Positions 8,553 to 23,303 of a DNA stretch of 64,000 nt are shown here, piece by piece. Below the pieces are notes generated by a model. It was not told the origin of the DNA and searched no databases. It was given only the letters and a program-made list of their open reading frames with translations. The stretch spans positions 1 through 64,000 of the forward strand of contig NZ_QNHG01000002.1 of the NCBI RefSeq assembly GCF_003290025.1, given 5' to 3'. The DNA is from Pseudogemmobacter bohemicus (lineage in GTDB: Bacteria; Pseudomonadota; Alphaproteobacteria; Rhodobacterales; Rhodobacteraceae). The position numbers and the translations under genes were made by a program. Numbering within the stretch: position 1 is the stretch's first letter; every line of letters begins with the position of its first letter.

Positions 8553-9911
8553 ATGACCACCGCGCTGCATCGCAAGCTCGCGAAGTCGAATGCCCATTTC
8601 AAAAAGGCGCTGAAGAAGCTGCCGCTGGGGGTGGCCTCGACCTTCCGATACTGGGGTGACGAGCGGACGATCTATGTCCATCACGGCAAGGGTGGCCGGA
8701 CCTGGGATATCGACGGCAATAATTACGTCGATTACCGGCTGGGTTACGGCCCGGCGATCCTCGGTTATGCAGACGACCGGGTTGATGCCGCCGCGCGGCG
8801 GGGGATGGAGGTCGGCGGCGTCTTCGCCCTTTCGACCGAACGCGAACTCGCCGTGGCCGAGCGCATCTCGAAAATGGTGCCTGCGGCAGAGCTGGTGCGG
8901 TTCTCCAATTCCGGCACCGAGGCGGTGATGTCGGCGCTGCGGCTGGCGCGCGCCTATACCGGCCGCGAGAGCTATCTGCTGGTCGAGGGCGGCTATCATG
9001 GCCTCTTCGACGCCGCCATGTGGATGGCCAATATGGATGAATGGGACGCCAAATCGAACAGCGACCCCGAGATCGTGCCCTATGGCAAGGGCATCCCAAA
9101 CACGGTCAAACAGCTCGCCCATCTGGTGCCGATGAACGATATGCAGCGGCTGGAGGACACCTTCCGCAAGCATGGCGACGATATGGCCGCAATGCTGATC
9201 GAGCCGATCCAAGGGAATTGCTGCGGCATCTCGGCACGTAAAGACTATGTGCAACTCGCCCGCAAACTCTGCGACCAATATGGCGTTTTGCTGATCATCG
9301 ACGAGGTGAAAACCGGCTTCCGCGTCGGCAAGGGCGGCATCCAGGGCATTCTGGGCGTGAAGCCCGATATCACCACCTTTGCGAAAGCGGTCGGCAATGG
9401 CTATCCGATCTCGCTGGTCGCGGGGCGCGAGGACATCATGCGCACCTTCCGCTATGGCGGCGCCTCGCATGGCGGCACCTATACCGCCCATTCCGTCAGC
9501 CTCGCCGCCGCCGAGGAGACGCTGCGCATCCTTGATGAGACTCCGGCGCTGGAGACACTGGCCAATTACGGCACGCGTCTGAAAACCGGCATCTCGGAGA
9601 TCCTTTCGGCGCGCGACATCACGCATAGCTTCTCGGGCCACCCGTCGATGTTCGGCATTTTCTTCGATGCCGTGCCGCCGGACAATTACCGCGCCTGGAA
9701 GACCTCGGATTACTCCTTCTACGACCGCATGGCCTACTATCTGCATGACATGAACATCATCGTAGAGCCGGATAGCCGCGAGCCCTGGTTCATGTGCGAG
9801 GCGCATGGCCTGGACGAGAGCTGCTACACCGACACCATCCGCGCGGTGGAAACGGCGGTCGACCTGACGCTGCGCGACCAGGCAGAGGGCAAGCTGGACG
9901 CCGCCGAATGA
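8553..9911 (+). CDS. Class III PLP aminotransferase
   Basis: This 452-residue fold-type I enzyme belongs to the omega-aminotransferase / glutamate-1-semialdehyde aminomutase group. The Schiff-base lysine is Lys278 in TTFAKAVGNG, the cofactor ring contact is Asp250 (IIDEVKTGF), and the phosphate-binding turn is SNSGT at 118-122. It is the first gene of the operon. Its stop overlaps the start of the first flavoprotein (ATGA). In this context it probably removes or moves the amino group of a pathway intermediate. Housekeeping heme synthesis is unlikely given its neighbours. Confidence 0.92.
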   Translation: MTTALHRKLAKSNAHFKKALKKLPLGVASTFRYWGDERTIYVHHGKGGRTWDIDGNNYVDYRLGYGPAILGYADDRVDAAARRGMEVGGVFALSTERELAVAERISKMVPAAELVRFSNSGTEAVMSALRLARAYTGRESYLLVEGGYHGLFDAAMWMANMDEWDAKSNSDPEIVPYGKGIPNTVKQLAHLVPMNDMQRLEDTFRKHGDDMAAMLIEPIQGNCCGISARKDYVQLARKLCDQYGVLLIIDEVKTGFRVGKGGIQGILGVKPDITTFAKAVGNGYPISLVAGREDIMRTFRYGGASHGGTYTAHSVSLAAAEETLRILDETPALETLANYGTRLKTGISEILSARDITHSFSGHPSMFGIFFDAVPPDNYRAWKTSDYSFYDRMAYYLHDMNIIVEPDSREPWFMCEAHGLDESCYTDTIRAVETAVDLTLRDQAEGKLDAAE

Positions 9912-11539
9912 CTTATGACGCGTTGATCCTCGGCGCGGGGCATAACGGGCTGGTCACTGCCTGTTACCTCGCCCGCGCCGGGATGAAGGTGCTGGTGGTC
10001 GAGAAAAACGACTGGGTCGGCGGCGCCGCCGTCTCGCGCGAACTGACCCCGGGCTTCACCTATTCCAATTGCTCCTATGTCGCATCGCTGTTCCGCCCCG
10101 AGATCATGCGCGATCTGGAACTGCCGCGCCACGGGTTGCAGATCCTGCCCTATGAGGGCGGCGCGGTGTTTCAGGAAGGCGGCGGCTATCTCGGCATGTA
10201 TCGCGACCATGACGCGAACCGTCGCGAATTTGCCCGCCATTCCGCCCGCGATGCCGAGGCCTATGACGTCTATTCCCGCGACGTGCTGCGCTTTTGCCGC
10301 TTCATCCGCCCGATGCTGTTGCGCACGCCCCCCGATCCGGCCCGCTTCCGGCCCCGCGATCTGGGGGAGCTCATGTTCATCGGCAAACAGGTCTCCGGCC
10401 TGTCGGAGCGGCAGATTGCCGAGATGGTCCGCTTCTGGACCATGTCGATCTCCGACTATCTCGACCACTATTTTGAAAGCCCGGTGATCAAGGCCTATCT
10501 CGCGGTCTCGGCGATCATCGGCACCGCCCTTGGGCCGATGTCGCCCGGCTCGGCCTATGTCCTGCTGCATCACTATATGGGCGATGTGGACGGCAATATC
10601 GGCGCCTGGGGCTTTGCGCGGGGCGGTATGGGGTCAATCACCAAAGCGCTGTCTTCGTCGCTGATGGCCTCGGGCGGAGATATCCGCACCGGTTCGCCGG
10701 TGGCGCAGGTGCTGGTGAAGAACGGACGCTCGGTCGGCGTCGTGCTGGAAAACGGCGACGAGATCCGGGCGAAGCGGGTGATTTCCAACATGGATGTCAA
10801 ACGCACCATGCTGAAACATGTCGCCGAGGCCGAGCTGCCCGGCGATTACGTCGCCTCGGTCAGGAAATTCAAGACGCGCGGCTCTTCGGGCAAGCTGAAC
10901 ATCGCGCTGGACGGGGTGCCGAAATTCACCGCCCTGCCCGAAGGGTCAAGCGCGATCAAAGGCGATCTGCATTTCACCGATTCCATCGAGAAGATGGAGC
11001 GCGCCTATGATGACTGGAAGAATGGTCATTTCAGCCGCGATCCGTTTCAGGACGTGATGATCCCCACCATGATCGACCCGACCATGACGCCGCCGGGCAA
11101 GCATTTCATGTCCTGTTTCGTGCAATATGCACCGCCAAAGATCGGGGGCCTGGCAGAGGGGGGCCGCGACTGGGCCGATGCCGATCGCGATGCTTTCGGC
11201 CAGGCCTGTCTCGACCAGATCGAACGCTACGCGCCGGGGTTCAAAAACCTCGTCCGCCATGTCGAGGTCCGCACGCCCCGCGAGCTGGAGGCCGAGGTCG
11301 GGCTGACCGAAGGCAATATCTTCCAGGGCGAGCTGACCTTTGACCAGTTGCTCTTCAACCGCCCGGTGCCGGGCTATGCCAATTACCGAACGCCGGTTCG
11401 TGATCTCTGGATCTGCGGCTCGTCGACCCATCCCGGCGGCGGGGTGATGGGGGCGCCCGGCCGCAATGCGGCGGCCGAGATCCTGCGCGATGCGAAACTC
11501 TCTCCAAAGGATATGAGCGATGCCTGGCCCGTCCTTTGA
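9908..11539 (+). CDS. FAD-dependent oxidoreductase, phytoene-desaturase-like (first copy)
   Basis: This 543-residue flavoprotein has a dinucleotide-binding GAGHNG at residues 9-14 followed by the acidic end of beta-2 (VVEKNDWVGG). A C-terminal flavin-binding segment reads CGSSTHPGGGVMG. This places it in the amine oxidase / phytoene dehydrogenase superfamily (PYROXD2-like), which oxidises C-N or C-C bonds. It overlaps the aminotransferase by 4 bases and the next flavoprotein by 20 bases. Carotenoid synthesis is unlikely because no other crt gene is present. The substrate is probably an amine or betaine intermediate. Confidence 0.88.
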   Translation: MTYDALILGAGHNGLVTACYLARAGMKVLVVEKNDWVGGAAVSRELTPGFTYSNCSYVASLFRPEIMRDLELPRHGLQILPYEGGAVFQEGGGYLGMYRDHDANRREFARHSARDAEAYDVYSRDVLRFCRFIRPMLLRTPPDPARFRPRDLGELMFIGKQVSGLSERQIAEMVRFWTMSISDYLDHYFESPVIKAYLAVSAIIGTALGPMSPGSAYVLLHHYMGDVDGNIGAWGFARGGMGSITKALSSSLMASGGDIRTGSPVAQVLVKNGRSVGVVLENGDEIRAKRVISNMDVKRTMLKHVAEAELPGDYVASVRKFKTRGSSGKLNIALDGVPKFTALPEGSSAIKGDLHFTDSIEKMERAYDDWKNGHFSRDPFQDVMIPTMIDPTMTPPGKHFMSCFVQYAPPKIGGLAEGGRDWADADRDAFGQACLDQIERYAPGFKNLVRHVEVRTPRELEAEVGLTEGNIFQGELTFDQLLFNRPVPGYANYRTPVRDLWICGSSTHPGGGVMGAPGRNAAAEILRDAKLSPKDMSDAWPVL

Positions 11540-13061
11540 CCGCACATCCTCTGATCGCAGCGTGATCGTCATCGGGGCCGGGCCGAATGGCCTTGCCTGC
11601 GCCCATCGGCTGGCGTCAAAAGGCCGAAAGGTTACGCTGATTGAGGCCGAGGCCCATCCCGGTGGCGGTGCCCGCGCATTGCCAGACCTCGCGCCGGGCC
11701 TGACTCCCTCACTCGCGCATCTGGTCTGGCAGCTTGACCCGCGCGTCGAGGCAGCGATGGACCTTGCGCGCCATGGTCTCGCCTGGGAGGCGACCGATAT
11801 CCCGACCACGGTGATCGGGCGCGAGGGCAATCTGGTAATCCGGGGCGCGCTGACCGACGGCCCGGATGCCGCCGCCTGGAAAGAACTGCACCAGCGGCTG
11901 ATGTCCTTCGCGGCAGCCCTGGAACCCTTTCGTCGCATGGCACCGCCGCGCCTCCAGGCTGCGGGCAATTCCTGGGGCAGGCTTGCGAAGAATCTGATCG
12001 GCATCCGGGCGCTTGGCACCAGGGATTTCCGCGAACTTTTGCGGGTCATCCTGATCAACGCCCATGACGTGGCGCAGGATGAGCTGAGCGACCCGCGCCT
12101 GCGCGCCGCGCTTTGTTTCGATGCGGTACTGGGTGCCTGGGCCGGGCCGCGTTCGCCCAATACGCTGATCCTGCTGCTGGACCGGCTGGCGGGAGAGATC
12201 GCGGGCCGCAAAGGTGCCCTGGCTTTGCCCAAAGGCGGCATGCCGGCGCTGGCACGCGCCATGGCCAATGCCGCAACCGCAGCAGGCGTTTCGCTGCGCA
12301 GCAATGCGCGGGTCAGCCGGATCAACATCGCCGATGATCAGGTCACCGGCATCACGCTGGAAAGCGGCGAAACCCTTGCAGCCCCGCTGGTCATCTCGGC
12401 CATCGGTCCGAAGGCGACGATCCTGTCGCTGGCCGGTGCGCAGCATTTCGACACCGGCCTTGTCACCGCGCTCAGGCATCAGAAATCGCGGGGCGGCACG
12501 GCAAAGCTCCACCTCGCGCTTTCCGCGCTGCCGGATTTCCAGGGCGCCGATCCGCGCGCGCGCATCCTGCTGACACGCGATGAGCATGAGGTCGAGACCG
12601 CCTTCAACCCGGTGAAATATGGGGAAGTGCCGGCGCGTCCGGTGATGGAAGTGGTGATCCCGACCGCCTTTGGCGGCACCGGCGCCCATCTTCTGTCGGC
12701 CAATGTACAATTCGCCCCCCATGCGCCAAAGGCGGGCGAGGATGCTGCGCGGGCTCAGATGCTGGCCGCCTGCATGACACGGCTGGAAGAGGCCGCGCCG
12801 GGGATCGGCGCGCTGATCACCAAAGCCGATCTGCTGATGCCCTATGATATCGAACGGCAATTCGGCATGGCAGGCGGCAACTGGCATCATGGTGAGCTGG
12901 CGGTGGAACAGATGCTTTTCAACCGGCCCATTGCACCGCTGTCGCGCTATGCGACACCGCTGAAAGGGCTCTGGCTGACCGGCGCCGGCACCCATCCCGG
13001 CGGCATGTCGGGCGCGGCCGGACGAAACGCGGCGGATGCCGTGCTGGAGGCGAAAGCATGA
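11520..13061 (+). CDS. FAD-dependent oxidoreductase, phytoene-desaturase-like (second copy)
   Basis: This 513-residue flavoprotein has GAGPNG at residues 19-24 and a C-terminal flavin segment TGAGTHPGGMSG. It is a diverged relative of the preceding gene, sharing the QMLFNRP-like segment (QLLFNRP in copy one), the LHLALS/LNIALD block and the THPGG motif. The N terminus overlaps the first copy by 20 bases in another frame, so translation is coupled. Tandem copies could form a heterodimer or perform two successive oxidations. It overlaps the GcvT-like gene by 4 bases. Confidence 0.87.
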   Translation: MPGPSFDRTSSDRSVIVIGAGPNGLACAHRLASKGRKVTLIEAEAHPGGGARALPDLAPGLTPSLAHLVWQLDPRVEAAMDLARHGLAWEATDIPTTVIGREGNLVIRGALTDGPDAAAWKELHQRLMSFAAALEPFRRMAPPRLQAAGNSWGRLAKNLIGIRALGTRDFRELLRVILINAHDVAQDELSDPRLRAALCFDAVLGAWAGPRSPNTLILLLDRLAGEIAGRKGALALPKGGMPALARAMANAATAAGVSLRSNARVSRINIADDQVTGITLESGETLAAPLVISAIGPKATILSLAGAQHFDTGLVTALRHQKSRGGTAKLHLALSALPDFQGADPRARILLTRDEHEVETAFNPVKYGEVPARPVMEVVIPTAFGGTGAHLLSANVQFAPHAPKAGEDAARAQMLAACMTRLEEAAPGIGALITKADLLMPYDIERQFGMAGGNWHHGELAVEQMLFNRPIAPLSRYATPLKGLWLTGAGTHPGGMSGAAGRNAADAVLEAKA

Positions 13062-14272
13062 GTGCATCCCCCTCTCTTCATGCGCCGCAGGCGCTGAACC
13101 ATTTCAGATCTCCGCTGGCGCAAACGCCTTTCCATCCGCGCACCAATGCCGCGAACCGCTTGCAGGGCTGGGCGCCATGGGCCGGCTATATGACCGCCAC
13201 CTGTTTCGGCGATTCCACCATGGAACATACGGCGATCCGCAATGCCGCGACGCTTTATGACATCTCGCCGATGGTGAAATACCGCATCACCGGGGCGGAT
13301 GCGGTGGCTTACCTCAACCGCCTGACTTTGCGCGATGTGGGGAAGCTGGCGACAGGCCAGGTGCATTACACCGCCTGGACCGATGATCTGGGCAAGGTGA
13401 TGGATGACGGCACGGTTTTCCGACTCGGCCCCGCCGATTTTCGCCTCTGCTGTCAGGAGCGGCATCTGCCCTGGCTGACGGAAACCGCCTGGGGGCTGGA
13501 TGTGGGGCTGCGAGACGAGAGCGAAGACCTCGCCGCGCTGGCGCTGCAGGGGCCGGTCTCGGCAACCGTGCTGCAAGAGGCCGGGTTCAACGTGCAGACG
13601 CTGAAGCCCTTCCGCATGGCGAGTTTCGCCTTTCAGGGCACCGATGTGCTGATCTCGCGCACCGGATTCACCGGCGATCTGGGCTATGAACTCTGGATCA
13701 CACCCGACCAGGCGCTGCCGCTCTGGGATCATCTGATGCAGGCCGGTGCGCTTTACGGGCTGATGCCGGCTGGATCCGAGGCGGTGATGCTGGCGCGGCT
13801 TGAGGCCGGCTTCATCACCACCGGCATGGATTTCGTCCCGGTGCAACATGCGGTGCGTGAGGATCGGGCGCGATCGCCATTCGAGCTGGGCCTCGACTGG
13901 ATGATCGCCTGGGACAAGGGCCATTTCACCGGCCGCCGGGCGCTGGCGGCAGAGCGCGACGGCAAAACCTCGAAATGGGCGCTGGTCGGACTGGACATCC
14001 CCGGTAATGTCAGTGCGGAGGGGGCGATCCTTTACTTCGACAAGCGCCGCGAGGCCGGGTTCATCACCGCCGCCTGCTGGTCGCCGACGCTGAAACGCAA
14101 CATCGCCATCGCCCAGGTCGAGGCGCGCCATGCCTCCTGTGACCATCTCTGGGTCGAAATCTACGCGCTGCGCGAGCTGCAATACCAAAAGCTGATGCTG
14201 CCGGTCACCAAAACCGCCCGCCCGTTTTTCGCACCCGAACGCCGTCGTGCCACACCACCGGGGAGATACTGA
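13058..14272 (+). CDS. GcvT-like aminomethyltransferase family protein
   Basis: This 404-residue protein has the GcvT/DmdA fold. Segments such as LYDISPMVKYRITG, VKYRITGADAVAYLNRL and the C-terminal barrel (LVGLDIPG, GFITAACWSPTLKRNIAIA) match the tetrahydrofolate-dependent family. This family includes the glycine cleavage T-protein, DMSP demethylase, and the folate domains of dimethylglycine and sarcosine dehydrogenases. Here it is a stand-alone protein beside Rieske and flavin oxidases. I infer that it passes a methyl or formaldehyde unit from an N-methylated intermediate to tetrahydrofolate. No gcvH or gcvP is nearby. Confidence 0.87.
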   Translation: MSASPSLHAPQALNHFRSPLAQTPFHPRTNAANRLQGWAPWAGYMTATCFGDSTMEHTAIRNAATLYDISPMVKYRITGADAVAYLNRLTLRDVGKLATGQVHYTAWTDDLGKVMDDGTVFRLGPADFRLCCQERHLPWLTETAWGLDVGLRDESEDLAALALQGPVSATVLQEAGFNVQTLKPFRMASFAFQGTDVLISRTGFTGDLGYELWITPDQALPLWDHLMQAGALYGLMPAGSEAVMLARLEAGFITTGMDFVPVQHAVREDRARSPFELGLDWMIAWDKGHFTGRRALAAERDGKTSKWALVGLDIPGNVSAEGAILYFDKRREAGFITAACWSPTLKRNIAIAQVEARHASCDHLWVEIYALRELQYQKLMLPVTKTARPFFAPERRRATPPGRY

Positions 14273-15456
14273 TGCCACATGATATTGCACAGAACGCCCC
14301 CCATCCCGACAGCCCCCGCCTCAGCCATTGCCCCGAAACGCTTCCCCGCGCAGCCTGGATCGCCCCCGACTGGTTCACGCGTGAGATGGAGACGATTTTC
14401 GCCCGGCAATGGGTGATGGTCGGGCGGCTGGCCGATCTTCCCCCTGGCACCCTGCGCGGCGTGAAGGCCGGCGCGGCACCGGTCCTGCTGGCGCGGGCGG
14501 CGGATGGCTCGCTTTCGGCCTTTCACAACAGCTGCCGCCATCGCGGTTCGGAACTGTGCCGCGAGGGCGAGGACCGGTCCTTCGGAAAGCTGATCACCTG
14601 CCCCTATCACGCCTGGGCTTATGGCGCCAAAGACGGGCGGCTGATCTCGACCGCCCATGCGATCCCGACCGCCGATTTCCGCAAAGAGGATCACGCGCTG
14701 AAGCCGGTGGCCCTGCGTCTCTGGAACGGGTTCATCTTTCTGAACCTCTCGCGCGATCCGGGTTCGATCCTGGCCGATATGCCGCTGGACACCTATGCCA
14801 ACTGGCCGATGGAGGGGCTGGTCACCGGCCATCGCTGGGAATCGGATCTCGGCTGCAACTGGAAAGCCTTTTGGGAGAATTACTCGGAATGCCTGCATTG
14901 CCCGGGCATCCACCCCGAGCTTTGCGACATGGTGCCGGTCTACCGACAGGGCATCATGGGCGCGAATGAGGCGCGGGGCTGGAGACCCGGTCAGCCCACC
15001 GGCCCGACCCTGAAACCCGGTGCCGAAAGCTGGACGCCCTCGGGCGCGCCCTGCGGGCCGGTCTTTCCCGGGCTGACCCCCGAGGAACGCGCGCGCGGCT
15101 ATACATTCGTCACGCTCTGGCCCTCGACCTATATCGTCGCCCATGTCGATTATGTCCGCGCCGTACGGCTGGAGCCGGTCTCCCCCACCCGCACCCGCCT
15201 GGTGGCTGAATGGTATTTCCCGCCCGAGACGCTGGGGCAGCCGGGTTTCGACCCCGCCGCCATTGCCGCCTTTGCAAAACTGGTGATGCAGCAGGACGGC
15301 GCGGCGTCGGAGATGAACCAGCGCGGCATCGCCTCGCCTGCCTTCACACGCGGCACGCTGATGCCCGAGGAATATGAAATCCATCGGTTTCACCAATGGG
15401 TGCTGGCCGAAATGGCCAAGGATGACAGGGTCCTGGATACGGAGGCAACCCAATGA
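14272..15456 (+). CDS. Rieske non-heme iron oxygenase, CntA/GbcA-like (first copy)
   Basis: This 394-residue alpha subunit has a Rieske cluster motif C88-x-H90 ... C110-x2-H113. The mononuclear iron site reads E206-x2-H209-x4-H214 (SECLHCPGIH). A bridging Glu in place of the usual Asp is known from carnitine oxygenase CntA (E205, H208, H213). A C-terminal QQDGAASEMNQ segment carries the likely Asp ligand. Such enzymes demethylate or cleave quaternary ammonium compounds. No reductase gene is present in the operon. Its start overlaps the GcvT-like stop by one base. Confidence 0.93.
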   Translation: MPHDIAQNAPHPDSPRLSHCPETLPRAAWIAPDWFTREMETIFARQWVMVGRLADLPPGTLRGVKAGAAPVLLARAADGSLSAFHNSCRHRGSELCREGEDRSFGKLITCPYHAWAYGAKDGRLISTAHAIPTADFRKEDHALKPVALRLWNGFIFLNLSRDPGSILADMPLDTYANWPMEGLVTGHRWESDLGCNWKAFWENYSECLHCPGIHPELCDMVPVYRQGIMGANEARGWRPGQPTGPTLKPGAESWTPSGAPCGPVFPGLTPEERARGYTFVTLWPSTYIVAHVDYVRAVRLEPVSPTRTRLVAEWYFPPETLGQPGFDPAAIAAFAKLVMQQDGAASEMNQRGIASPAFTRGTLMPEEYEIHRFHQWVLAEMAKDDRVLDTEATQ

Positions 15457-16682
15457 CCGGCTTTCCCGCTACGCCGCTGCAATCAGACCCGATCCCTTCT
15501 GGCTGGGATCGTCGCGGACTGCCGGCCTGGACCTACCATTCCCGCGCGTTGTTCGACCTGGAACGCGAAGAGGTGTTTCTGAACCACTGGCAGGTCGCCG
15601 GCCATGTCTCGGATATTCCGGCCCCCGGCGACTGGCTGTCTTTTGATCTTCTGGGCGAGCGGGCGGTGATCATTCGTGGCCAGGACGGCGTGGTTCGCGC
15701 CTTTATGAACCTCTGCCGCCATCGCGGCGCACGGGTGGTTGACGGCGCGCAGGGGAAATGCCGGGGCGCGCTGGTCTGCCCCTTCCATGGCTGGGTCTAT
15801 AACCTTGACGGCACCCTGCGCGGCGTCTCGCGCCCCGACACGTTCGGCGAGGGGCTGGACAAAAGCGCCTTCGGCCTGAAACCCCTGGAGCTGGAGATTT
15901 TCGCAGGCTTCCTGTTCCTGCGCTTTCGCCCCGGCCCGCAGCCAGCGGTCGCGGAATTGCTGGCCCCTTACGCGCCCGATTTCGCGGCCTGGCGTTCTGA
16001 CCGGCTGATGCCGCTGGATATTTCCGGCTGGTCGGCCGAACTGGAGGTGAACTGGAAATCGGTCCGCGACGTGGATAATGAAGGCTATCACGTCGCCCTC
16101 GCCCATCCGTCTTTGCAGGACCTTTACGGCCGCGATTACCGCGACCTCTATTTGCCCGGGGGCTTTCATGTCAGCTACGGCTTTTACGGCGACCGCCCCG
16201 GCCGGCGCTGGTCGGTGAAGAACTATGTGAAACACTCGCCGATGCGAGACGACCTGCCGCCGCATCTGAGGCGGAACTGGGCCTATTACGGCCTCTTCCC
16301 CAATATCGTGATCGCCTTCACCCCCGAGACCGCGCAATTCTACCACGACGTGCCGCTGTCGCCGGGCAAGACCCTGCTGACCGGCCGCCAATACCGGATC
16401 GCCGATGAGGACCGCCAGACCCGCGCCGCCCGCTACCTGGCGCATCGGATCGACCGCGACACTTCGGCCGAGGATCAGCAGCTTTCCATCTGGTCGAACG
16501 AATCGATGCGGTCGGAAAATTTCGAGGGCTTCCACCTCTCGGATCTCGAATACGGGCTGCGCCGCCATCACGATCAGCTGCGCCGCCTGCTGCCGGTGAT
16601 GACCCGAGGTGCCGCACCCGCAGAGGGTGAAATGCGCGCCGTTAACAAGGATTTGCTTTGCGCAGGAGAGGGCCGGGCATAG
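15453..16682 (+). CDS. Rieske non-heme iron oxygenase, CntA/GbcA-like (second copy)
   Basis: This 409-residue alpha subunit has Rieske ligands C88, H90, C109 and H112. Its iron site is E210-x2-H213-x4-H218 (NEGYHVALAH), the same spacing as E205/H208/H213 of CntA. It differs widely from the preceding copy, so the pair is not a recent duplication. The two could act on successive methyl groups, or form one mixed trimer. It overlaps the first Rieske gene by 4 bases, and a 42-base gap precedes the transporter genes. Confidence 0.93.
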   Translation: MTGFPATPLQSDPIPSGWDRRGLPAWTYHSRALFDLEREEVFLNHWQVAGHVSDIPAPGDWLSFDLLGERAVIIRGQDGVVRAFMNLCRHRGARVVDGAQGKCRGALVCPFHGWVYNLDGTLRGVSRPDTFGEGLDKSAFGLKPLELEIFAGFLFLRFRPGPQPAVAELLAPYAPDFAAWRSDRLMPLDISGWSAELEVNWKSVRDVDNEGYHVALAHPSLQDLYGRDYRDLYLPGGFHVSYGFYGDRPGRRWSVKNYVKHSPMRDDLPPHLRRNWAYYGLFPNIVIAFTPETAQFYHDVPLSPGKTLLTGRQYRIADEDRQTRAARYLAHRIDRDTSAEDQQLSIWSNESMRSENFEGFHLSDLEYGLRRHHDQLRRLLPVMTRGAAPAEGEMRAVNKDLLCAGEGRA

Positions 16683-16724
16683 GCTTTCTTAAAAACATAT
16701 AACAAACCACCCAGGGAGAACGAC

Positions 16725-17843
16725 ATGAAGCTGACCCGTCGCCACGCGCTTTCCGCCCTATCCGGTGCAGTCCTCGCCACTCCGCTTTCGGCGCCCTTCA
16801 TCCGCCCGGCACGGGCCCAGTCCGGTTCGGTCAATGTCTATAACTGGTCGGACTATATCGGTGAAACGACCGTCGCCGATTTCGAGGCCGAGACCGGGAT
16901 TTCCGTGGTCTATGACCTTTATGCCAGCGCCGAAGAGGTGGATGCGAAAATGCTGGTCGGCGGCACCGGCTATGATCTGGTGCTGCAATCGGGCATGTCC
17001 TATCCGCGCATGGTGGCGGCGGGGATCTATCAGCAGCTCGACCGCTCGAAACTGCCGGGCTGGAAAAATCTCGACCCCGATATCCTGAAGATCGTCGAAG
17101 ATTACGACCCCGGGCTGCTGCATGGTGTTCCCTATATGTGGGGATCGGTCGGGATGGCCTACAATATGCAGATGGTGCGCGAGCGTCTGCCCGACGCCAA
17201 CCTCGACAGTCTCGACGTGCTGTTCAAACCGGAGAATGCGGCGAAACTGGCGGATTGCGGGATCTCGGTTCTCGATAGCCCGACCGATGCCGGCTATATG
17301 ATGCTGAAATATCTGGGCATCGACCCGAATACCGCCGGCGCCGCCGAATATGCGAAAATGGCCGAGGCCTTTGCGCCGATCCGGCAATATATCTCGACCT
17401 TTGACAATGCGAATTATCTCAATGCGATCCCCAATGGAGAGCTTTGTGTGATCAATTCCTGGTCGGGCGATTACGGCGTCGCCAAGACCCGCGCCGCCGA
17501 GGCCGGGATCGAGATGGAGCTGGCCTATTTCGTACCGGAAACCGGCGCTCCGGCCTGGTTCGACCTCTTCGGCATTCCCGCCGATGCGCCAAATACCGAG
17601 AATGCGTATAAATTCCTCGATTACCTTTTGCGCCCCGAAGTGGCGGCGGCCTGCACCAATTACACCGGCTATGCCAATGCCAATGCGGCAGCGACGCCGC
17701 TGGTCGATCCCGCGATTGCCAGCGACCCGGCGATCTATCCCGATGATGCGACCCTGTCGCGCCTCTTCACCACAAGGCCAATGTCTGAAGAGCAGGAGCG
17801 CGACCTGAACCGCGCCTGGCAGCAGATCAAGAGCGGCGGCTGA
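16725..17843 (+). CDS. Polyamine-type ABC transporter, periplasmic binding protein
   Basis: This 372-residue protein belongs to the PotD/PotF group of solute-binding proteins. It carries a twin-arginine type signal (TRRHALSALSGAVLA, cleavage near PARAQ), and the mature part begins VNVYNWSDYIGE, a hallmark of the family. The AGGGAG ribosome site is 8 bases upstream. In this operon the ligand is more likely an N-methylated cation than spermidine or putrescine, because the other genes are oxidative demethylation types. Ligand-site residues were not compared. Confidence 0.92.
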   Translation: MKLTRRHALSALSGAVLATPLSAPFIRPARAQSGSVNVYNWSDYIGETTVADFEAETGISVVYDLYASAEEVDAKMLVGGTGYDLVLQSGMSYPRMVAAGIYQQLDRSKLPGWKNLDPDILKIVEDYDPGLLHGVPYMWGSVGMAYNMQMVRERLPDANLDSLDVLFKPENAAKLADCGISVLDSPTDAGYMMLKYLGIDPNTAGAAEYAKMAEAFAPIRQYISTFDNANYLNAIPNGELCVINSWSGDYGVAKTRAAEAGIEMELAYFVPETGAPAWFDLFGIPADAPNTENAYKFLDYLLRPEVAAACTNYTGYANANAAATPLVDPAIASDPAIYPDDATLSRLFTTRPMSEEQERDLNRAWQQIKSGG

Positions 17844-17855
17844 GGCGAACCCGTC

Positions 17856-18956
17856 ATGTCAGACCCGGCCCCTTTCATCCGCATCGAGGGCGTCTCCAAA
17901 CGCTTTGGGCATTTCGAAGCGGTGCGTGACGTCAATCTGACCATTGGCAAGGGCGAGATCTTCGCCCTGCTCGGCGGCTCCGGCTGCGGCAAGACCACGC
18001 TTTTGCGGATGCTGGCGGGGTTCGAGACGCCGACATCAGGCCGTATTTATATCGACGGTCAGGATATGGCAGATACCGCCCCCTGGGACCGGCCGGTGCA
18101 TATGATGTTCCAGAGCTACGCGATCTTCCCGCATATGAGCGTCGAAAAGAACATCGCCTATGGGCTGAAACATGAGAAGCTGACCGCGGCCCAGCGGGCG
18201 GCCCGGGTCGGGGAAATGCTGGCCCTGGTGCAGCTGACGCCGTTTGCCAAACGCAAACCGCATCAGATTTCCGGCGGGCAAAGACAGCGTGTGGCGCTGG
18301 CGCGCGCGCTGGCGCGGCAACCCAAGGTGCTGCTGCTGGATGAACCTCTCGCGGCGCTGGACAAGAAACTGCGCGAACATACCCAGTTCGAGCTGATGTC
18401 CATTCAGCAGCGCACCGGGGTCACCTTCGTTGTGGTCACCCATGACCAGGAAGAGGCAATGACACTCGCCGACCGCATCGCGGTGATGGACAAGGGCGAG
18501 GTGAAACAGGTCGGCCCGGCAAACGAGATCTACGAATACCCGAATTCCCGCTTTGTCGCCGGCTTCATCGGCGCCATCTCCACCTATCCCGGCCGCGTCA
18601 TTCGTCTCACCGGCGATATCGCCGAGATCGACATCCCCGCGATGGAGGGCACCTTCGCCGCCCGCAGCCTTCCCGGCCTGACCGAGGGCCAGCAGGTCAC
18701 CGTCGCGTTGCGCCCCGAAAAAATCGCCATCTCGAAAACCTGCCCCGACGCGGTGAACGTGGTCGAGGGCCAGGTGAAAGACCTCGCCTATTTCGGCAAA
18801 GACAGCCTCTACCGCGTCACCCTGCCGGGCGGCGAGCTGATCTCGGTCCATGCGGTCAATGCGCGCCGTGCTTCGGAATCCGGTCGCCCCGCCGATTGGG
18901 ATGACCGCGTCTGGCTCTCCTTCGAGCCCGCCTCAGCCATAATCCTCACGGATTGA
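17856..18956 (+). CDS. Polyamine-type ABC transporter, ATP-binding subunit
   Basis: This 366-residue ATPase has Walker A GGSGCGKTT at 40-48, the signature ISGGQRQRVALARAL and Walker B VLLLDEPLAALD. A C-terminal TOBE domain follows (about 285-360). It resembles PotA/PotG. It follows the binding-protein gene by 12 bases. A 121-base gap containing a copy of the dispersed repeat separates it from the permease genes. Confidence 0.94.
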   Translation: MSDPAPFIRIEGVSKRFGHFEAVRDVNLTIGKGEIFALLGGSGCGKTTLLRMLAGFETPTSGRIYIDGQDMADTAPWDRPVHMMFQSYAIFPHMSVEKNIAYGLKHEKLTAAQRAARVGEMLALVQLTPFAKRKPHQISGGQRQRVALARALARQPKVLLLDEPLAALDKKLREHTQFELMSIQQRTGVTFVVVTHDQEEAMTLADRIAVMDKGEVKQVGPANEIYEYPNSRFVAGFIGAISTYPGRVIRLTGDIAEIDIPAMEGTFAARSLPGLTEGQQVTVALRPEKIAISKTCPDAVNVVEGQVKDLAYFGKDSLYRVTLPGGELISVHAVNARRASESGRPADWDDRVWLSFEPASAIILTD

Positions 18957-18990
18957 GGAGCCAGATCATGTGGACAGAAAGCGCCCTCTC

Positions 18991-19042
18991 CTTCCTCTTG
19001 ACTGAAATACTCCCGGGGGGTGCGGGGGGCAGGCAGCCCCCC
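18991..19042 (-). repeat. Dispersed 3'-end repeat, GAGTATTT / TCAAGAGGAA subtype with G-rich hairpin
   Basis: The minus strand reads a GGGGGG-CTGCCTG-CCCCCC hairpin, then CCCCCCGGGAGTATTT and TCAAGAGGAAG. It sits inside the transporter operon and points against transcription. It is the only copy here that is not in the sense direction of an upstream gene. Confidence 0.6.
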
Positions 19043-19077
19043 GTCTCCGACGCCAGCCACACACCAGGAGGCCAGAT

Positions 19078-20001
19078 ATGAAAGCCCTCGCCTCCTGGTT
19101 CCACCGCCGCGGCTGGCGCGAGCTGATCATCGGCATCCCCTATCTCTGGCTGACCCTCTTCTTCCTGATCCCCTTCCTGATCGTCGTGGCGATGAGCGTC
19201 GCCACCCGCACCCCCACAGCACCCCCCTTCGGTTATGGCGGCGAGAACCCGATCCTCAATTTCGAGGGCTATGGCCGGCTTTTCACCGAAACCCTCTATA
19301 TCCGCGCCTTCGTCACCTCGCTGATGAATGCCGCCATCGCCACGCTGTTCTGCCTGGCTCTCGGCTATCCGATGGCGCTCGGCCTCACCCGCGTCTCGAA
19401 ATCCTGGCGCAATATCCTGTTGATGCTGGTGATCCTGCCCTTCTGGACCTCGTTCCTCTTGCGGGTCTACGCCTGGATGGGGCTGATGGGCCGGAACTCC
19501 TGGTTCAACTCGATGCTGACCGACGCCTGGAATTTCGTCGTGCCGCAGGCTTACACGCTGAACTCGATCCCGATGATGAACACCAATTTCGCGGTGATCC
19601 TCGTCATGGTCTATACCTACCTGCCCTTTATGATCCTGCCGCTTTACGCCAATCTCGAACGGCTCGACCCTGTGCTCGACGAGGCGGCAATGGATCTCGG
19701 CTCCCGACCTTTCCAGGTCTTCCGCGACGTGACCCTGCCGCAATCCATCCCCGGCATCATCGCGGGCGGCATGCTGGTCTTCATCCCTGCGGCCGGAGAG
19801 CTGGTGATCCCCTCCCTCGTCGGCAACCCGTCCTCGCCGATGATCGGCCGCATCATCTCGGATGAATTCGCGCAAGTCAGGGACTGGCCGATGGCTTCCA
19901 CCGTCGCTGTGGCGCTGCTGATCCTGATGGTCGGGCCGACCATGCTTTACGCACGATACCAGCAAAAGGCCGAAAGCGCCGGCGCGGAGGACAAACCATG
20001 A
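19078..20001 (+). CDS. Polyamine-type ABC transporter, permease 1 (PotB/PotH-like)
   Basis: This 307-residue inner-membrane protein has about six hydrophobic segments. It carries the cytoplasmic EAA loop (DEAAMDLGSRPFQVFRDVTLP) that contacts the ATPase, and starts after AGGAGG. Together with the next gene it forms the translocation channel. The gap upstream may carry its own leader, but no clear promoter was found. Confidence 0.93.
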   Translation: MKALASWFHRRGWRELIIGIPYLWLTLFFLIPFLIVVAMSVATRTPTAPPFGYGGENPILNFEGYGRLFTETLYIRAFVTSLMNAAIATLFCLALGYPMALGLTRVSKSWRNILLMLVILPFWTSFLLRVYAWMGLMGRNSWFNSMLTDAWNFVVPQAYTLNSIPMMNTNFAVILVMVYTYLPFMILPLYANLERLDPVLDEAAMDLGSRPFQVFRDVTLPQSIPGIIAGGMLVFIPAAGELVIPSLVGNPSSPMIGRIISDEFAQVRDWPMASTVAVALLILMVGPTMLYARYQQKAESAGAEDKP

Positions 20002-20837
20002 CCCGCCGTCCCGTCTTCCTGATCACCGTGATGTGCTTTGGCTTTGCCTTCTTCTACATCCCGATCCTGTCGATGATCGTCTATTCCTTCAATGAAAGCC
20101 GGCTTGCCACCGTCTGGGGCGGGTTCTCGACCAAATGGTATGTCTCGCTGTTCTCCAACCGCCAGGTCGGCGCCGCGCTCTGGCTGTCGTTAAAGATCGC
20201 CCTGGTCTCGGCCAGTATCGCGACGATCCTTGGTGCCATGGCCGGGATCACGCTGGCACGGTTTCGCAAATTCCGCGGCCGCACGCTGTTTTCCGGCATG
20301 GTCACCGCGCCTCTGATCATGCCCGAGGTGATCACCGGCATCTCGCTTCTGATCTTCTTCACCCTGCTGGCCAACTGGATCGGCTGGCCCGGGCAACGCG
20401 GCTTCACCACCATCACCCTGGCACATATCACCTTCTCCATGGTCTTCGTCACCACCGTCGTCCATTCGCGCATGACCCAGATGGACCGCTCGATCGAAGA
20501 GGCGGCGATGGATCTCGGCTCGCGCCCCTGGCAGGTTTTGCGGGATGTGACGCTGCCGGTGATTTCGCCGGCGCTGCTTTCGGGCTGGCTGCTGGCCTTC
20601 ACCATTTCGCTGGATGATGTGGTGATCTCGTCCTTTGTCACCGGGCCGGGTGCGACCACGCTGCCCTTGCTGATCTGGTCCAAGGTCAAGCTGGGCGTCA
20701 CCCCCGACATCAACGCGCTGGCGACGCTGATCGTGGCGCTGGTCGGCATCTGCGTGATCCTTGCCGGCTGGCTGATGAGCCGGGCCGAAAGGCGCCGCCT
20801 GGCCGAACAACGGCTTGCCTACAGGACGAATGGATGA
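19998..20837 (+). CDS. Polyamine-type ABC transporter, permease 2 (PotC/PotI-like)
   Basis: This 279-residue inner-membrane protein has the EAA loop EEAAMDLGSRPWQVLRDVTLP and about six transmembrane segments. It overlaps permease 1 by 4 bases and the cupin gene by 4 bases, so the transporter and the downstream enzymes are one transcription unit. It has the family's usual length. Confidence 0.93.
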   Translation: MTRRPVFLITVMCFGFAFFYIPILSMIVYSFNESRLATVWGGFSTKWYVSLFSNRQVGAALWLSLKIALVSASIATILGAMAGITLARFRKFRGRTLFSGMVTAPLIMPEVITGISLLIFFTLLANWIGWPGQRGFTTITLAHITFSMVFVTTVVHSRMTQMDRSIEEAAMDLGSRPWQVLRDVTLPVISPALLSGWLLAFTISLDDVVISSFVTGPGATTLPLLIWSKVKLGVTPDINALATLIVALVGICVILAGWLMSRAERRRLAEQRLAYRTNG

Positions 20838-21682
20838 GCGCCGCGCTCTGGCTTGCACTGGCCGAGCCTGCCGGTCCCGCCGGGTCCGGCAGGCGCCGCT
20901 ACGCTGCTGCGATGGCACTGCATGGCGCCGGCCTTCTTTCCACCGCCCAGCTGGAATCCTACCGCGAGGCCGCCACCACCGACGCCATCGACCCGCATCG
21001 CGTCATGGCGGATCGCGGCCTCGCCCCGCCCGAACCGCCGGAGCCTGATCTGGCCGCCCGCCTCTCGCATCTTCTGCAGGAGACCGACCGCTGCCTCTCT
21101 GCCCTGACCGGTCCCGGCATTGCCGAAATCCGCAGCCTGCTCGCGCCCTCGCTGCTGCAAAGGCCGGTGCCACGGACCGGCTCTGACAATCCGGTGGTCC
21201 GCAGCCATATCGCGGCAGCGCTCGAGGCGATGCATCCCACCGATCCGACCCTTGCCGCCGCCATCGGCACGCTGGCCCGGGATCTGCCCTGGATCACCTA
21301 TGACGCCTATCCCCTGTCCGAAATAGGGCCGCATTTCGGGCGCGTGCATGCCTTTTGTACGCTGGTCGGTGCGGGGGCCGCCTGGCCTGCCGATGATTTC
21401 GACCTCGGGCTTTTCCTGGTGGCGCCCGGCGTGCTTTACCGCGACCATGCCCATCCCGCGCCCGAACTTTATCTGCCGCTGACCGGCCCGCATCGCTGGC
21501 GTTTCGCCCCCGATACGCCCTTCCGGCCGCTGCCCGCCTTTCACCCTGTCTGGAACCCGCCGCTGCAACCGCATGCGACCCTGACCGGCGCCGTCCCCTT
21601 CCTCAGCCTTTTCGCCTGGACGCGCGATGTCGATCAGCCCGCCCATGTGCTGCCCGCCAGCGACTGGAGCCTTTATGAGTGA
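20834..21682 (+). CDS. DMSP-lyase-like cupin protein
   Basis: This 282-residue protein has a C-terminal cupin with H205-x-H207-x3-E211-x-Y213 (DHAHPAPELYLP) and a second-motif His247. This spacing matches the metal site of the cupin DMSP lyases (DddW, DddQ, DddL group), which split DMSP into DMS and acrylate. The N-terminal ~150 residues are helical, as in that family. It lies between a permease gene and an amidohydrolase gene, overlapping both. Family relatives need not cleave DMSP, so the gene is not called dddQ or dddW. A lyase or isomerase acting on a betaine intermediate is an alternative. Confidence 0.75.
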   Translation: MSAALWLALAEPAGPAGSGRRRYAAAMALHGAGLLSTAQLESYREAATTDAIDPHRVMADRGLAPPEPPEPDLAARLSHLLQETDRCLSALTGPGIAEIRSLLAPSLLQRPVPRTGSDNPVVRSHIAAALEAMHPTDPTLAAAIGTLARDLPWITYDAYPLSEIGPHFGRVHAFCTLVGAGAAWPADDFDLGLFLVAPGVLYRDHAHPAPELYLPLTGPHRWRFAPDTPFRPLPAFHPVWNPPLQPHATLTGAVPFLSLFAWTRDVDQPAHVLPASDWSLYE

Positions 21683-23303
21683 CACCCTCCTGATCAATGG
21701 CCGGATCCATACGATGGATCCGGGCCTGCCGCTGGCCTCTGCCCTCCTGATTCGCGATGGGCTGATCGCCGCTGTCGGAGGCGCGGAAATCGCCGCCCTC
21801 GCACCGGGTGTCAGACAGGTCGACCTCGGCGGCCGGCTGGTGCTGCCCGGTTTTCAGGATCCGCATACGCATCTCTTGTCCGGTGGCACCGATCTCACCA
21901 CCGCCGCGCAACTCTATGATGCCGAAACGCTGCATGATCTGGCGCGGCTGATCCAGGACCATACCGCGCGACGGCCCGATCTGCCGCTGATCATCGGCGC
22001 GGGCTGGCAGCCGGGCTATTTCGGCGATCACAACCTGACCGCCGCCTGGGTCGACCCGCTGACAGGCCACCGCCCGGCGCTGATCTACGATTCCAGCTTT
22101 CACTCCGCCTGTTTCAACACAGCCGCGCTGGAAATGGCGGGGATCGGAACGGACACGCCCGACCCGCCCAATGGCCATATCCTGCGTGACACCGCCGGAC
22201 GCCCCACCGGGATGCTGCATGAAGACGCCATTCCCTGGGCGCTGGAACGCCTGCCCGCCTTCACCGATGACCAGCTGATCGAGGGGCTCCTGGCCGGCCA
22301 GGCCCATGCCAATCGCCACGGCATCACCGGCGTGATCGACGCGAAGATCACCGCGACGGAGGCGCGGATTTATGCCCGTGCCGCGCGTGAGAACCTTTTG
22401 ACCCTGCGCGTCGCCGGTGCGGCGCATGTGTCCGAGGCCGATACACCGGAAAGCGCCGTCGCCCGGCTCAGCGCGCTGCGCGCCGCCCATCCCGGCCCCG
22501 ATTTCCACATCAATGCCGCGAAATTCTTCATGGATGGGGTATTCGAGAACCGCACAGCCGCCTGTCTCGCCCCCTATGCCGATGGGCCCGGCGGCAATGC
22601 GCCCTGCATGTTCACCCGCGATCAGACGCTGGCCCTGATGACCGCGCTTGATGCGGCGCGGTTCCAGATCCATGTCCATGTGATCGGGGACGCCGCCTGC
22701 ACCCGCGCGCTTGACGGGCTTGAGGCGGCTTTGGCCGCGAATGGTCCCTGGCCCGCCAGCCATCAGATCACCCATCTGCAACTGGTCGCAGCCCAGGATT
22801 TCCCCCGCCTTGCCCGCCTCGCCATGGCGAATATCCAGCCGCTCTGGGCCCGGTTCGACCCGAAAATCCCTGATATTGCGCTGGAGATGATCGGTCCTTC
22901 GCGCCTGCCACAGACCTATGCCTTCCGCGACATGCGCGACCCCGGCACCCCGATCACCCTGTCTTCGGACTGGCCGGTCTCGACCCTGAACCCGTTCGAG
23001 ATCATCGAAACCGCCATCACCCGCCAGGCCCGCCAGGTCGAGGATCCAGGTCCGCCCTTCCTGCCTGACCAGGCGCTGAGCATCGGCGAATGCGTGGCGG
23101 GCTATACGGTCCAGGCGGCGCGTGCCTGCTGGCGCGAGGGCTATAGCGGGCGGCTCACGCCCGGGTTTTCCGCCGATCTGATCGTGACCGACCAGGATAT
23201 CTTCACCTGCCCGCCGACGCAGATTTCCGCGACCAGAGTTCTCCTGACCCTGTTCCGAGGCCGCATGGTCTGGCGCGATCCGGGCTGCGATCTCGCAGTC
23301 TGA
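21675..23303 (+). CDS. YtcJ-type metal-dependent amidohydrolase
   Basis: This 542-residue protein belongs to the amidohydrolase 3 group. The metal-binding motif PHTH lies in VLPGFQDPHTHLLSGG near residue 57. Later metal ligands are in QIHVHVIGDAA and the SSDWPVSTLNP segment. It starts MSDTLLINGRIHTMD, overlaps the cupin by 8 bases and ends the operon. Such enzymes hydrolyse amides or imides, often exocyclic ones. Here it may open a ring or release an N-acyl group of the transported compound. A typical metal-bound member should be cytoplasmic, and no signal peptide is seen. Confidence 0.87.
   Translation: MSDTLLINGRIHTMDPGLPLASALLIRDGLIAAVGGAEIAALAPGVRQVDLGGRLVLPGFQDPHTHLLSGGTDLTTAAQLYDAETLHDLARLIQDHTARRPDLPLIIGAGWQPGYFGDHNLTAAWVDPLTGHRPALIYDSSFHSACFNTAALEMAGIGTDTPDPPNGHILRDTAGRPTGMLHEDAIPWALERLPAFTDDQLIEGLLAGQAHANRHGITGVIDAKITATEARIYARAARENLLTLRVAGAAHVSEADTPESAVARLSALRAAHPGPDFHINAAKFFMDGVFENRTAACLAPYADGPGGNAPCMFTRDQTLALMTALDAARFQIHVHVIGDAACTRALDGLEAALAANGPWPASHQITHLQLVAAQDFPRLARLAMANIQPLWARFDPKIPDIALEMIGPSRLPQTYAFRDMRDPGTPITLSSDWPVSTLNPFEIIETAITRQARQVEDPGPPFLPDQALSIGECVAGYTVQAARACWREGYSGRLTPGFSADLIVTDQDIFTCPPTQISATRVLLTLFRGRMVWRDPGCDLAV

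What the first reader, a model, noticed from the sequence alone, without database searches (positions are those of the whole stretch)
8553..23303. Eleven-gene operon for uptake and oxidative N-demethylation of an unknown N-methylated compound
Enzyme classes (aminotransferase, two flavoproteins, GcvT-like, two Rieske oxygenases, cupin, amidohydrolase) and a polyamine-type importer are packed with overlaps in one transcription unit under a divergent BetI-like regulator. The Rieske enzymes have the CntA-type site, and the GcvT-like protein suits methyl transfer to folate. I know of no characterised pathway with this gene set, although homarine, trigonelline, stachydrine or trimethyllysine degradation would be reasonable guesses. 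Inference: the compound is a cationic N-methylated osmolyte or aromatic betaine.
Basis: partly seen in the sequence, partly recalled or inferred. Interest (0 to 1): 0.88.

Follow-up and report, generated by a model that had tools for sequence, protein, structure and literature searches.

The report
Operon for degrading a methylated amine
A tightly packed set of twelve bacterial genes, repeated in many related bacteria, looks like an undescribed route for importing a methylated, positively charged nitrogen compound (probably a methylated relative of putrescine) and stripping off its methyl groups.

Summary
The gene set is real and conserved, but has twelve genes, not eleven: aminotransferase, two flavoproteins, GcvT-like protein, two Rieske oxygenases (RO1, RO2), four PotFGHI-type importer genes, a two-domain DMSP-lyase-family cupin and an amidohydrolase, opposite a BetI-like repressor gene. 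In 41 complete Rhodobacterales-type loci (picked by RO2), importer, repressor and the cupin's N-terminal domain go with RO2 almost always; aminotransferase and FAD/FAD/GcvT only with RO1 (one incomplete locus breaks this). The operator TGATTGAC-N4-CARTCA is in 47 of 49 intergenic regions. Both oxygenases carry the bridging glutamate of carnitine/betaine-type Rieske enzymes but form clades of their own.

A relative cluster adds a PuuC-like dehydrogenase. So a methylated diamine is likelier than a betaine. In 39 of 40 cluster-bearing genomes there is a trimethylamine monooxygenase gene or the GcvT module, so both may serve methyl removal; the trimethylamine enrichment is weak in an unselected family sample (6 of 13 against 50 of 235). 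Substrate, activities and electron donor are unproven; no structure model could be made.

The parts
7767..8423 (-). BetI-like TetR repressor gene
   Evidence: PF00440 and PF13977 above cut-off; BetI equivalog 88.9 bits, below cut-off 201.3
8488..8505 (+). Conserved palindromic operator TGATTGAC-N4-CAGTCA
   Evidence: same site in 47 of 49 TetR/first-gene intergenic regions exactly, 2 with one mismatch; only exact copy in the window's genome
8553..9911 (+). Class III aminotransferase (AT3), HemL/GntE-like
   Evidence: PF00202; best NCBIfam GntE 439.5 bits, cut-off 525, not met
9908..11539 (+). FAD1, CrtO/amine-oxidase-like flavoprotein
   Evidence: PF01593; start set at 9908 from conservation and ATGA overlap
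11520..13061 (+). FAD2, second CrtO/amine-oxidase-like flavoprotein
   Evidence: PF01593
13058..14272 (+). GcvT-like aminomethyltransferase
   Evidence: PF01571, PF08669; best PDB TMAO demethylase 9q5a, E 2e-48
14272..15456 (+). RO1, Rieske oxygenase alpha subunit
   Evidence: PF00355, PF00848; best PDB 3vca, bridging Glu
15453..16682 (+). RO2, Rieske oxygenase alpha subunit
   Evidence: PF00355, PF00848; best PDB carnitine monooxygenase 6y9c; bridging Glu
16725..17843 (+). PotF-type solute-binding protein
   Evidence: best PDB PotF and SpuD-type chains, E 1e-95 to 1e-98; pocket residues
17856..18956 (+). ABC transporter ATPase (PotG-type)
   Evidence: PF00005, PF08402
19078..20001 (+). ABC permease 1
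   Evidence: PF00528
19998..20837 (+). ABC permease 2
   Evidence: PF00528
20834..21682 (+). Two-domain protein: N-terminal small domain (about residues 8-70, free-standing in some relatives) plus DMSP_lyase-family cupin
   Evidence: PF16867 66.6 bits, cut-off 27; domain split; conserved H205 H207 E211 Y213 H247
21675..23303 (+). Amidohydrolase (Amidohydro_3); ORF listed from 21627
   Evidence: PF07969 289 bits; start

Best explanation
A catabolic operon for a dicationic N-methylated diamine or polyamine-like compound: a quaternary or tertiary ammonium at one end, a primary amine at the other. Proposed order: (1) the PotF-type ABC importer takes it up, and the ligand or a product lifts the BetI-like repressor from its operator; (2) RO2, then RO1, hydroxylate next to the ammonium nitrogen, which removes a methyl group as formaldehyde or cleaves the C-N bond and frees a methylated amine; (3) FAD1 and FAD2 oxidise the remaining N-methyl groups and the GcvT-like protein passes them to tetrahydrofolate; (4) the aminotransferase removes the primary amine to give an aldehyde for central metabolism; (5) the DMSP-lyase-family cupin and the amidohydrolase do accessory steps (elimination or ring/amide opening) that not all relatives need. 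Shown by sequence: gene set, conservation, operator, domain families, active-site and pocket residues. Inferred: substrate class, reaction order, every enzymatic activity, source of electrons for the oxygenases. The confidence below is for the whole statement with a diamine as substrate; for an N-methyl-ammonium catabolic operon without the diamine part it would be about 0.75.
For: Conserved cluster: 41 complete Rhodobacterales-type loci. Pocket: operon SBPs have D39 60/61, D247 59/61 (2 E), D278 61/61, aromatic W37 and W244 61/61, which PotF work assigns to binding the amines and the carbon chain (PMC8666671, passages). E185 is D in 61/61 while 21 of 23 ordinary PotF-type paralogues of the family have E, and position 87 is M, L or I in 53/61 against none of 23: a diamine site with a roomier, less polar distal end. 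A relative cluster (L162) joins a PotF-type importer, a Rieske gene, FAD1-FAD2-GcvT, a PuuC-like aldehyde dehydrogenase (PuuC best model, 557.5 bits, cut-off 850, not met) and a PRK07036 aminotransferase above cut-off, its SBP again with D185 and the three aspartates. Rieske enzymes: bridging Glu as in YeaW/CntA, Stc2-like and GbcA rows, Asp in HcaE. Methyl removal: 39 of 40 cluster genomes have Tmm or the GcvT module near RO2 (38 of 40 if FAD1 is the marker); Tmm is in 19/20 without and 10/20 with GcvT, Fisher p 0.003, not corrected for kinship.
Against: Two Rhizobiales SBPs tested (L042, L043), in clusters with RO2, FAD1-FAD2-GcvT and an aminotransferase, lack D39, D247 and D278 (G, T, C), so the diamine reading cannot be stretched to them. 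D185 is not proof of the Rieske link: the two ordinary paralogues with D185 (L219, L220) have no Rieske gene within the stretch fetched. No paper on trimethylated diamines was found for six name forms (0 papers), so the proposed natural substrate is not known to be abundant. The cupin and the amidohydrolase, and the PMT-like methyltransferase of relatives, have no clear role. The operon has no reductase gene; a GbcB-type reductase is in only 14 of 40 cluster genomes. Pocket inference rests on alignment without a structure model.
Confidence: 0.45

Rival explanations
1. Same substrate class, different chemistry: RO2 works like carnitine monooxygenase CntA and cleaves the C-N bond, releasing trimethylamine and an aldehyde; trimethylamine is then burnt by Tmm and its partner genes in some genomes and by FAD1-FAD2-GcvT in others.
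For: RO2's best solved relative is carnitine monooxygenase. A gene above cut-off for trimethylamine monooxygenase (760.4 bits, cut-off 675) follows the cluster in L088 with a GcvT-like and a reductase gene. Tmm is in 29/40 cluster genomes and in the window's own genome. The clusters without RO1 have Tmm in 8/8 (with RO1 21/32, p 0.08).
Against: RO2 does not group with YeaW in the tree. Linkage of Tmm to the cluster was seen in one locus only. In the family sample the enrichment is weak: 6 of 13 genomes with RO2 at 65% or more against 50 of 235 others, p 0.08 (5 of the 18 genomes with a more distant RO2 among the 235 have Tmm). 29/40 against 50/235 gives p 5e-10, but the 40 were picked as best RO2 matches, some genomes are in both samples, and nothing is corrected for kinship. 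Confidence lowered from 0.35 to 0.3.
Confidence: 0.3
2. One reading: a zwitterionic betaine (homarine, trigonelline, stachydrine, trimethyllysine) is imported and demethylated.
For: RO1's best PDB match is 3vca, which I recall as stachydrine demethylase Stc2; RO1 is sister to the GbcA/Stc2-like group, support 90/75 only. BetI-like repressor with an operator one mismatch from a site between genes that read as choline uptake and betaine genes. The two Rhizobiales SBPs tested lack the diamine aspartates.
Against: The operon's own SBP keeps the diamine carboxylates. I see no gene in the operon for a betaine ring or carnitine backbone (amidohydrolase role unknown).
Confidence: 0.2
3. Ordinary polyamine (putrescine, spermidine) uptake and transamination, with the Rieske and GcvT genes serving another substrate under the same control.
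For: PotF equivalog is the best SBP model (342.7 bits, cut-off 636); ordinary PotF-type paralogues of the family lie beside class III aminotransferases in 3 of the 4 E185-type contexts looked at.
Against: The minimal clusters keep RO2 with the importer and drop the aminotransferase, the reverse of what this predicts; the SBP distal pocket differs from ordinary PotF paralogues.
Confidence: 0.12
4. A sulfonium compound related to DMSP is degraded: the cupin cleaves it and the GcvT-like protein demethylates it.
For: Cupin in PF16867 above cut-off, with metal ligands and tyrosine conserved; GcvT-like protein has a weak DmdA match, 125.4 bits, cut-off 410.
Against: The GcvT-like protein scores higher as TMAO demethylase and as GcvT; 6 of 41 complete loci lack the cupin domain; the SBP is diamine-type; the closest solved cupin match has E 1.1e-8.
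Confidence: 0.06

Closest known systems
Carnitine monooxygenase CntA/CntB (E. coli YeaW/YeaX)
   Same: Rieske alpha subunit without a beta-subunit gene beside it, bridging Glu; best PDB match of RO2
   Different: RO2 is a separate clade; no CntB-type reductase gene in the operon
Glycine betaine monooxygenase GbcAB and stachydrine demethylase Stc2
   Same: RO1 nearest in tree (90/75) with an E-C-x-H-C site in both
   Different: RO1 scores 152 bits against GbcA cut-off 670; own clade with support 100/99
TMAO demethylase Tdm and dimethylglycine/sarcosine oxidases
   Same: Homologous GcvT-type folate domain; oxidation of N-methyl coupled to it in the known enzymes (recalled)
   Different: Here the GcvT protein is separate and is paired with two CrtO-like flavoproteins
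Putrescine uptake and catabolism (PotFGHI, Spu, Puu)
   Same: Importer family and diamine carboxylates; a class III aminotransferase; PuuC-like gene in one relative cluster
   Different: Distal pocket E185D and hydrophobic position 87; Rieske and GcvT genes
DMSP lyase cupins (DddQ/DddL type)
   Same: PF16867, HxH...E.Y...H motif
   Different: Fused to a small N-terminal domain without Pfam match; activity unknown

Membership tests
Quaternary-amine Rieske oxygenases (CntA/GbcA/Stc2 type) | Rieske CxH...CxxH and His-His-carboxylate iron site | tested here: met
   Rieske motif in RO1, RO2 and every compared row; RO2 H213, H218 and D341 conserved in at least 95% of 81 rows, RO1 H209, H214 and D342 in at least 95% of 47; their role as ligands is by homology, recalled
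Quaternary-amine Rieske oxygenases (CntA/GbcA/Stc2 type) | Bridging Glu in place of Asp | tested here: met
   Glu in 8 of 8 RO1 and 13 of 13 RO2 rows, Asp in HcaE; that this marks the class is recalled
Quaternary-amine Rieske oxygenases (CntA/GbcA/Stc2 type) | Falls inside the GbcA, CntA or Stc2 group | tested here: not met
   GbcA model 152 and 122 bits, cut-off 670; RO1 and RO2 each form separate clades
Quaternary-amine Rieske oxygenases (CntA/GbcA/Stc2 type) | Reductase gene next to the oxygenase gene | tested here: not met
   no match to four reductases in the window or in 85 of 86 stretches compared; elsewhere in the genome GbcB-like in 14 of 40 cluster genomes, L088-type reductase in 29 of 40
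PotF putrescine-binding proteins | D39, D247, D278, E185, aromatic box | tested here: inconclusive
   all kept in the window protein but E185, which is D in 61/61 orthologues; PotF equivalog cut-off not met
DMSP lyase cupins | PF16867 domain and metal/tyrosine motif | tested here: met
   66.6 bits, cut-off 27; motif residues conserved
DMSP lyase cupins | DMS release from DMSP | not testable with these tools
   needs enzyme assay
GcvT / TMAO demethylase / DMSP demethylase | Curated equivalog score | tested here: not met
   TMAO demethylase 257.5 (1100), gcvT 177.9 (235.85), DmdA 125.4 (410) bits
BetI | BetI equivalog score | tested here: not met
   88.9 bits, cut-off 201.3
BetI | Palindromic operator of BetI type in the divergent promoter | tested here: inconclusive
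   conserved operator found; a one-mismatch copy lies between genes that read as choline uptake/oxidation genes (gene names by reading, not by model)
Guanitoxin transaminase GntE | GntE equivalog score | tested here: not met
   439.5 bits, cut-off 525

The most novel reading that the evidence does not exclude
An undescribed, widespread bacterial pathway that imports and degrades N-methylated (quaternary) diamines or polyamines, built by joining a modified putrescine importer, two new clades of Rieske oxygenase and a split flavin/GcvT demethylation module, with a DMSP-lyase-family cupin doing a new C-N cleaving reaction. Between genomes the pathway swaps its FAD/GcvT module for the trimethylamine oxidation genes.
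Probability: 0.3. Interest if true: 0.8.

Novelty: new variant of a known kind. Interest (0 to 1): 0.6.

Why it matters
If the substrate is a methylated diamine, a part of dissolved organic nitrogen now invisible to gene-based surveys would become traceable, and a gene that annotation names as DMSP lyase family would be explained as something else. The operator, the pocket and the module swap make the guess directly testable.

Tried and rejected
Aromatic ring dioxygenase: rejected (family scores, tree). Chance packing: rejected. GbcB as the general electron donor: weakened, 14 of 40 genomes. PMT-like SAM methyltransferase as an essential part: it is in 18 of 41 complete loci but the window's genome has only weak, partial matches. 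Small N-terminal domain: no Pfam match for three free-standing copies at E 1 and two more at E 0.1; no function proposed. Promoter and terminator scan of 7700-24000: about as many sites as shuffles (4 against 2.9, 10 against 10.3). Operator sought in six loci of the PRK07036 type (five Rhizobiales, one Parasedimentitalea): none. Paper searches in which I found no description of this gene set: (listings only; the library is open-licence PubMed Central, no bioRxiv). Of two papers I saw passages: PMC8666671 (used) and PMC6421345 (nothing on this cluster). I recall a homarine operon called homABCDER in marine bacteria; one search found no paper with that word, so it was not compared.

Limits: gene calling in loci is a simple ORF heuristic of mine; presence or absence was scored by tblastn identity thresholds within the fetched stretch only, so a module elsewhere in a genome is not counted; loci are related, so counts are not independent; the loci were picked by RO2 and capped at the best 80 of 577, so distant forms are under-sampled; 27 of the 80 loci were dropped from the table because a contig end lay within 9 kb of RO2. 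Exceptions among dropped loci: L094 has AT3-FAD1-FAD2-GcvT and RO2 without RO1; L059 and L078 have the small cupin CUP7 together with GcvT.
Full report
Anatomy. The stretch 8553-23303 holds twelve genes on the + strand: class III aminotransferase (AT3), FAD1, FAD2, GcvT-like, RO1, RO2, solute-binding protein, ATPase, two permeases, cupin, amidohydrolase. A BetI-like TetR gene is divergent at 7767-8423. With FAD1 starting at 9908 and the amidohydrolase at about 21675, six of eleven junctions are overlaps of 1-4 nt; the widest gap is 121 nt. Of the ten proteins scanned with NCBIfam, none meets the curated cut-off of a named equivalog: GntE 439.5/525, GcvT 177.9/235.85, TMAO demethylase 257.5/1100, GbcA 152 and 122/670, PotF 342.7/636, BetI 88.9/201.3. 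So the operon is made of known superfamilies but, as far as these models go, of unnamed subfamilies.

Conservation. The cupin searched in 248 genomes of the family gave 95 with a match at E 0.001; apart from the window itself 9 had full-length matches at 48-55% identity, and these lie beside RO1, RO2 and/or the importer. The closest is Paracoccus sp. IB05, RO2 90%, with the same flanking genes. Of the 80 loci, 53 have at least 9 kb on both sides of RO2; 41 are of the window's type and 12 carry a PRK07036-type aminotransferase instead. In the 41: SMALL domain 40, SBP 39, TetR 37, cupin domain 35, RO1 33, AT3 21, GcvT 21, FAD1 20, amidohydrolase 18, PMT-like methyltransferase 18, a second small cupin (CUP7) 12. 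RO2 is in all by design of the search. In these 41, AT3, FAD1, GcvT and PMT do not occur without RO1 (21/21, 20/20, 21/21, 18/18), and CUP7 not with FAD1 or PMT. Among the 27 incomplete loci L094 breaks the first rule and L059 and L078 the second. RO2 with importer, repressor and SMALL looks like the core, RO1 comes next, and AT3 and FAD1-FAD2-GcvT are mostly added on RO1. The loci are related, so the counts are not independent events.

Control region. Intergenic regions of 49 loci (window included) share the dyad TGATTGAC-N4-CARTCA: 47 exact, 2 with one mismatch. Exact six-base dyads were shared by up to 8 loci, against 1 in each of 50 mononucleotide shuffles. In the window the site is 8488-8505. 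The window's genome has one exact copy, this one; of three other places with one mismatch, one lies between a binding-protein gene and a pair of aldehyde dehydrogenase and GMC-oxidoreductase genes that read like choX and betBA, the other two inside or beside unrelated genes (names by reading). The repressor thus looks like a BetI paralogue that kept a BetI-like operator. Six PRK07036-type loci lack the site.

Oxygenases. In a tree with YeaW (carnitine), an Stc2-like protein (beside an annotated stc4 gene), the window genome's GbcA-like protein and HcaE (aromatic), RO1 and RO2 form separate clades (RO1 100/99; RO2 98/96); RO1 is sister to GbcA/Stc2-like at 90/75, RO2 is joined by the Rieske protein of cluster L162 at 92/68; several reference rows have long branches, so deep placement is unsure. 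The 8 RO1 and 13 RO2 rows have Glu at the bridging position, HcaE has Asp. So they look like quaternary-amine Rieske enzymes in site chemistry but are not members of the characterised groups. No reductase like GbcB, YeaX, Stc4 or the PDR type was found in the window or in 85 of 86 stretches; the exception, L088, has its reductase inside what looks like a trimethylamine gene set. The window's genome has a GbcA/GbcB-like pair elsewhere (498.9/670 and 364.8/500 bits).

Binding protein. Best solved relatives are PotF and SpuD-type chains. Using PotF residue roles from passages of PMC8666671: in 61 orthologues D39 60, D247 59 (2 Glu), D278 61, W37 61, W244 61, R254 61. E185, a distal-amine contact, is Asp in 61/61; position 87 is M, L or I in 53/61. 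In 23 ordinary PotF-type paralogues (under 50% identity) from the same family E185 is kept in 21 and position 87 is T, S, D, A or H. Of four E185-type contexts fetched, three have a class III aminotransferase beside the importer; the two D185-type controls have no Rieske gene nearby, so D185 alone does not mark Rieske clusters. I infer a dicationic ligand whose distal ammonium is bulkier than in putrescine. Against this, two Rhizobiales SBPs (L042, L043) and that of L044 lack D39, D247 and D278 but keep aromatic residues, so their ligand differs.

Wider family. FAD1 orthologues at E 1e-120 occur in 24 of 289 genomes of the class, the window's included. I fetched eight contexts outside the family; two are short contigs. 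In L162 FAD1-FAD2-GcvT sits with a PotF-type importer (50%), a Rieske gene, an NADH:flavin oxidoreductase, a PuuC-like aldehyde dehydrogenase (557.5 bits, cut-off 850), a PRK07036 aminotransferase (683, cut-off 618), and a glutamine-synthetase-like gene that does not discriminate (194.6 bits type III glutamine synthetase, 189.4 gamma-glutamylputrescine synthetase, both below cut-off). L165 has AT3-FAD1-FAD2-GcvT, L164 a PMT-like gene, a distant SBP and PRK07036 with the module, L167 and L169 AT3 nearby; L166 has no aminotransferase. So an aminotransferase is near the module in five of the eight.

Fate of the methyl groups. In L088 the cluster (RO1 to cupin) is followed by a GcvT-like gene, a reductase, a gene 68% like one in the window genome's own GcvT/reductase set on contig C4, and a gene above the cut-off for trimethylamine monooxygenase (760.4 bits, 675) (I recall the set as Dmm, no model named it). 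Tmm was then sought in the genomes of the 41 complete loci (40 held): 29 have it, and the same 29 have the reductase. Genomes without the GcvT module near RO2 have Tmm in 19 of 20, those with it in 10 of 20 (Fisher p 0.003); 39 of 40 have at least one, 38 of 40 if FAD1 is taken as marker. In the family sample Tmm is in 6 of 13 genomes with RO2 at 65% or more and in 50 of 235 others (p 0.08), 18 of the latter with a more distant RO2. None of this is corrected for kinship and some genomes are in both samples. It suggests that the pathway yields methylated amine that either the Tmm-type genes or FAD1-FAD2-GcvT oxidise, and leaves open C-N cleavage of the CntA kind by RO2. The window's genome has both.

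Cupin. The 282-residue protein has PF16867 at 114-257 (66.6 bits, cut-off 27). H207, E211, Y213 and H247 are invariant in 51 aligned sequences and H205 nearly so. Its N-terminal part occurs as a free-standing protein of 74-112 residues after the permease, after RO2 or, in two Rhizobiales plasmids, after GcvT. Family membership is met; lyase activity is untested, and 6 of 41 loci lack the cupin domain. I do not read it as evidence for DMSP.

Verdict. My best explanation, a methylated diamine or polyamine, is held at 0.45; the broader claim without the diamine at about 0.75. No paper describing this gene set turned up in the searches.

Noticed in passing
window 23620-27157: Genes that look like the start of a Flp/Tad pilus set (RcpC/CpaB-like below cut-off, AAA_31 below cut-off, T2SSE above cut-off) begin after the operon on the same strand.
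   Followed up: no
window 18957-19077: A GC-rich, inverted-repeat-like stretch fills the widest gap of the operon, before the first permease gene.
   Followed up: no
L021, L022, L028, L035, L037 and others: A SAM methyltransferase most like plant phospho-base N-methyltransferases (5wp5, E 1.5e-32) sits in 18 of 41 complete loci, all with RO1, and in 8 of 12 PRK07036-type loci without RO1; odd in a demethylation cluster.
   Followed up: partly
L022 (same region as L082), L080, L092, L095: MttB-family trimethylamine methyltransferase homologues lie near the cluster.
   Followed up: partly
L029, L034 and 12 of 41 complete loci: A second small ChrR-type cupin (Cupin_7) lies after the operon; not with FAD1 in the complete loci, but with GcvT in the incomplete L059 and L078.
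   Followed up: partly
L090: The record is titled Exiguobacterium profundum (a Firmicute, recalled) but carries a typical Rhodobacterales-type cluster, so the title is probably wrong.
   Followed up: no
L068, L070, L100, L107: A choline-kinase-like gene and a fused FAD/GcvT gene (dimethylglycine-dehydrogenase-like by reading) lie beside the repressor gene.
   Followed up: partly
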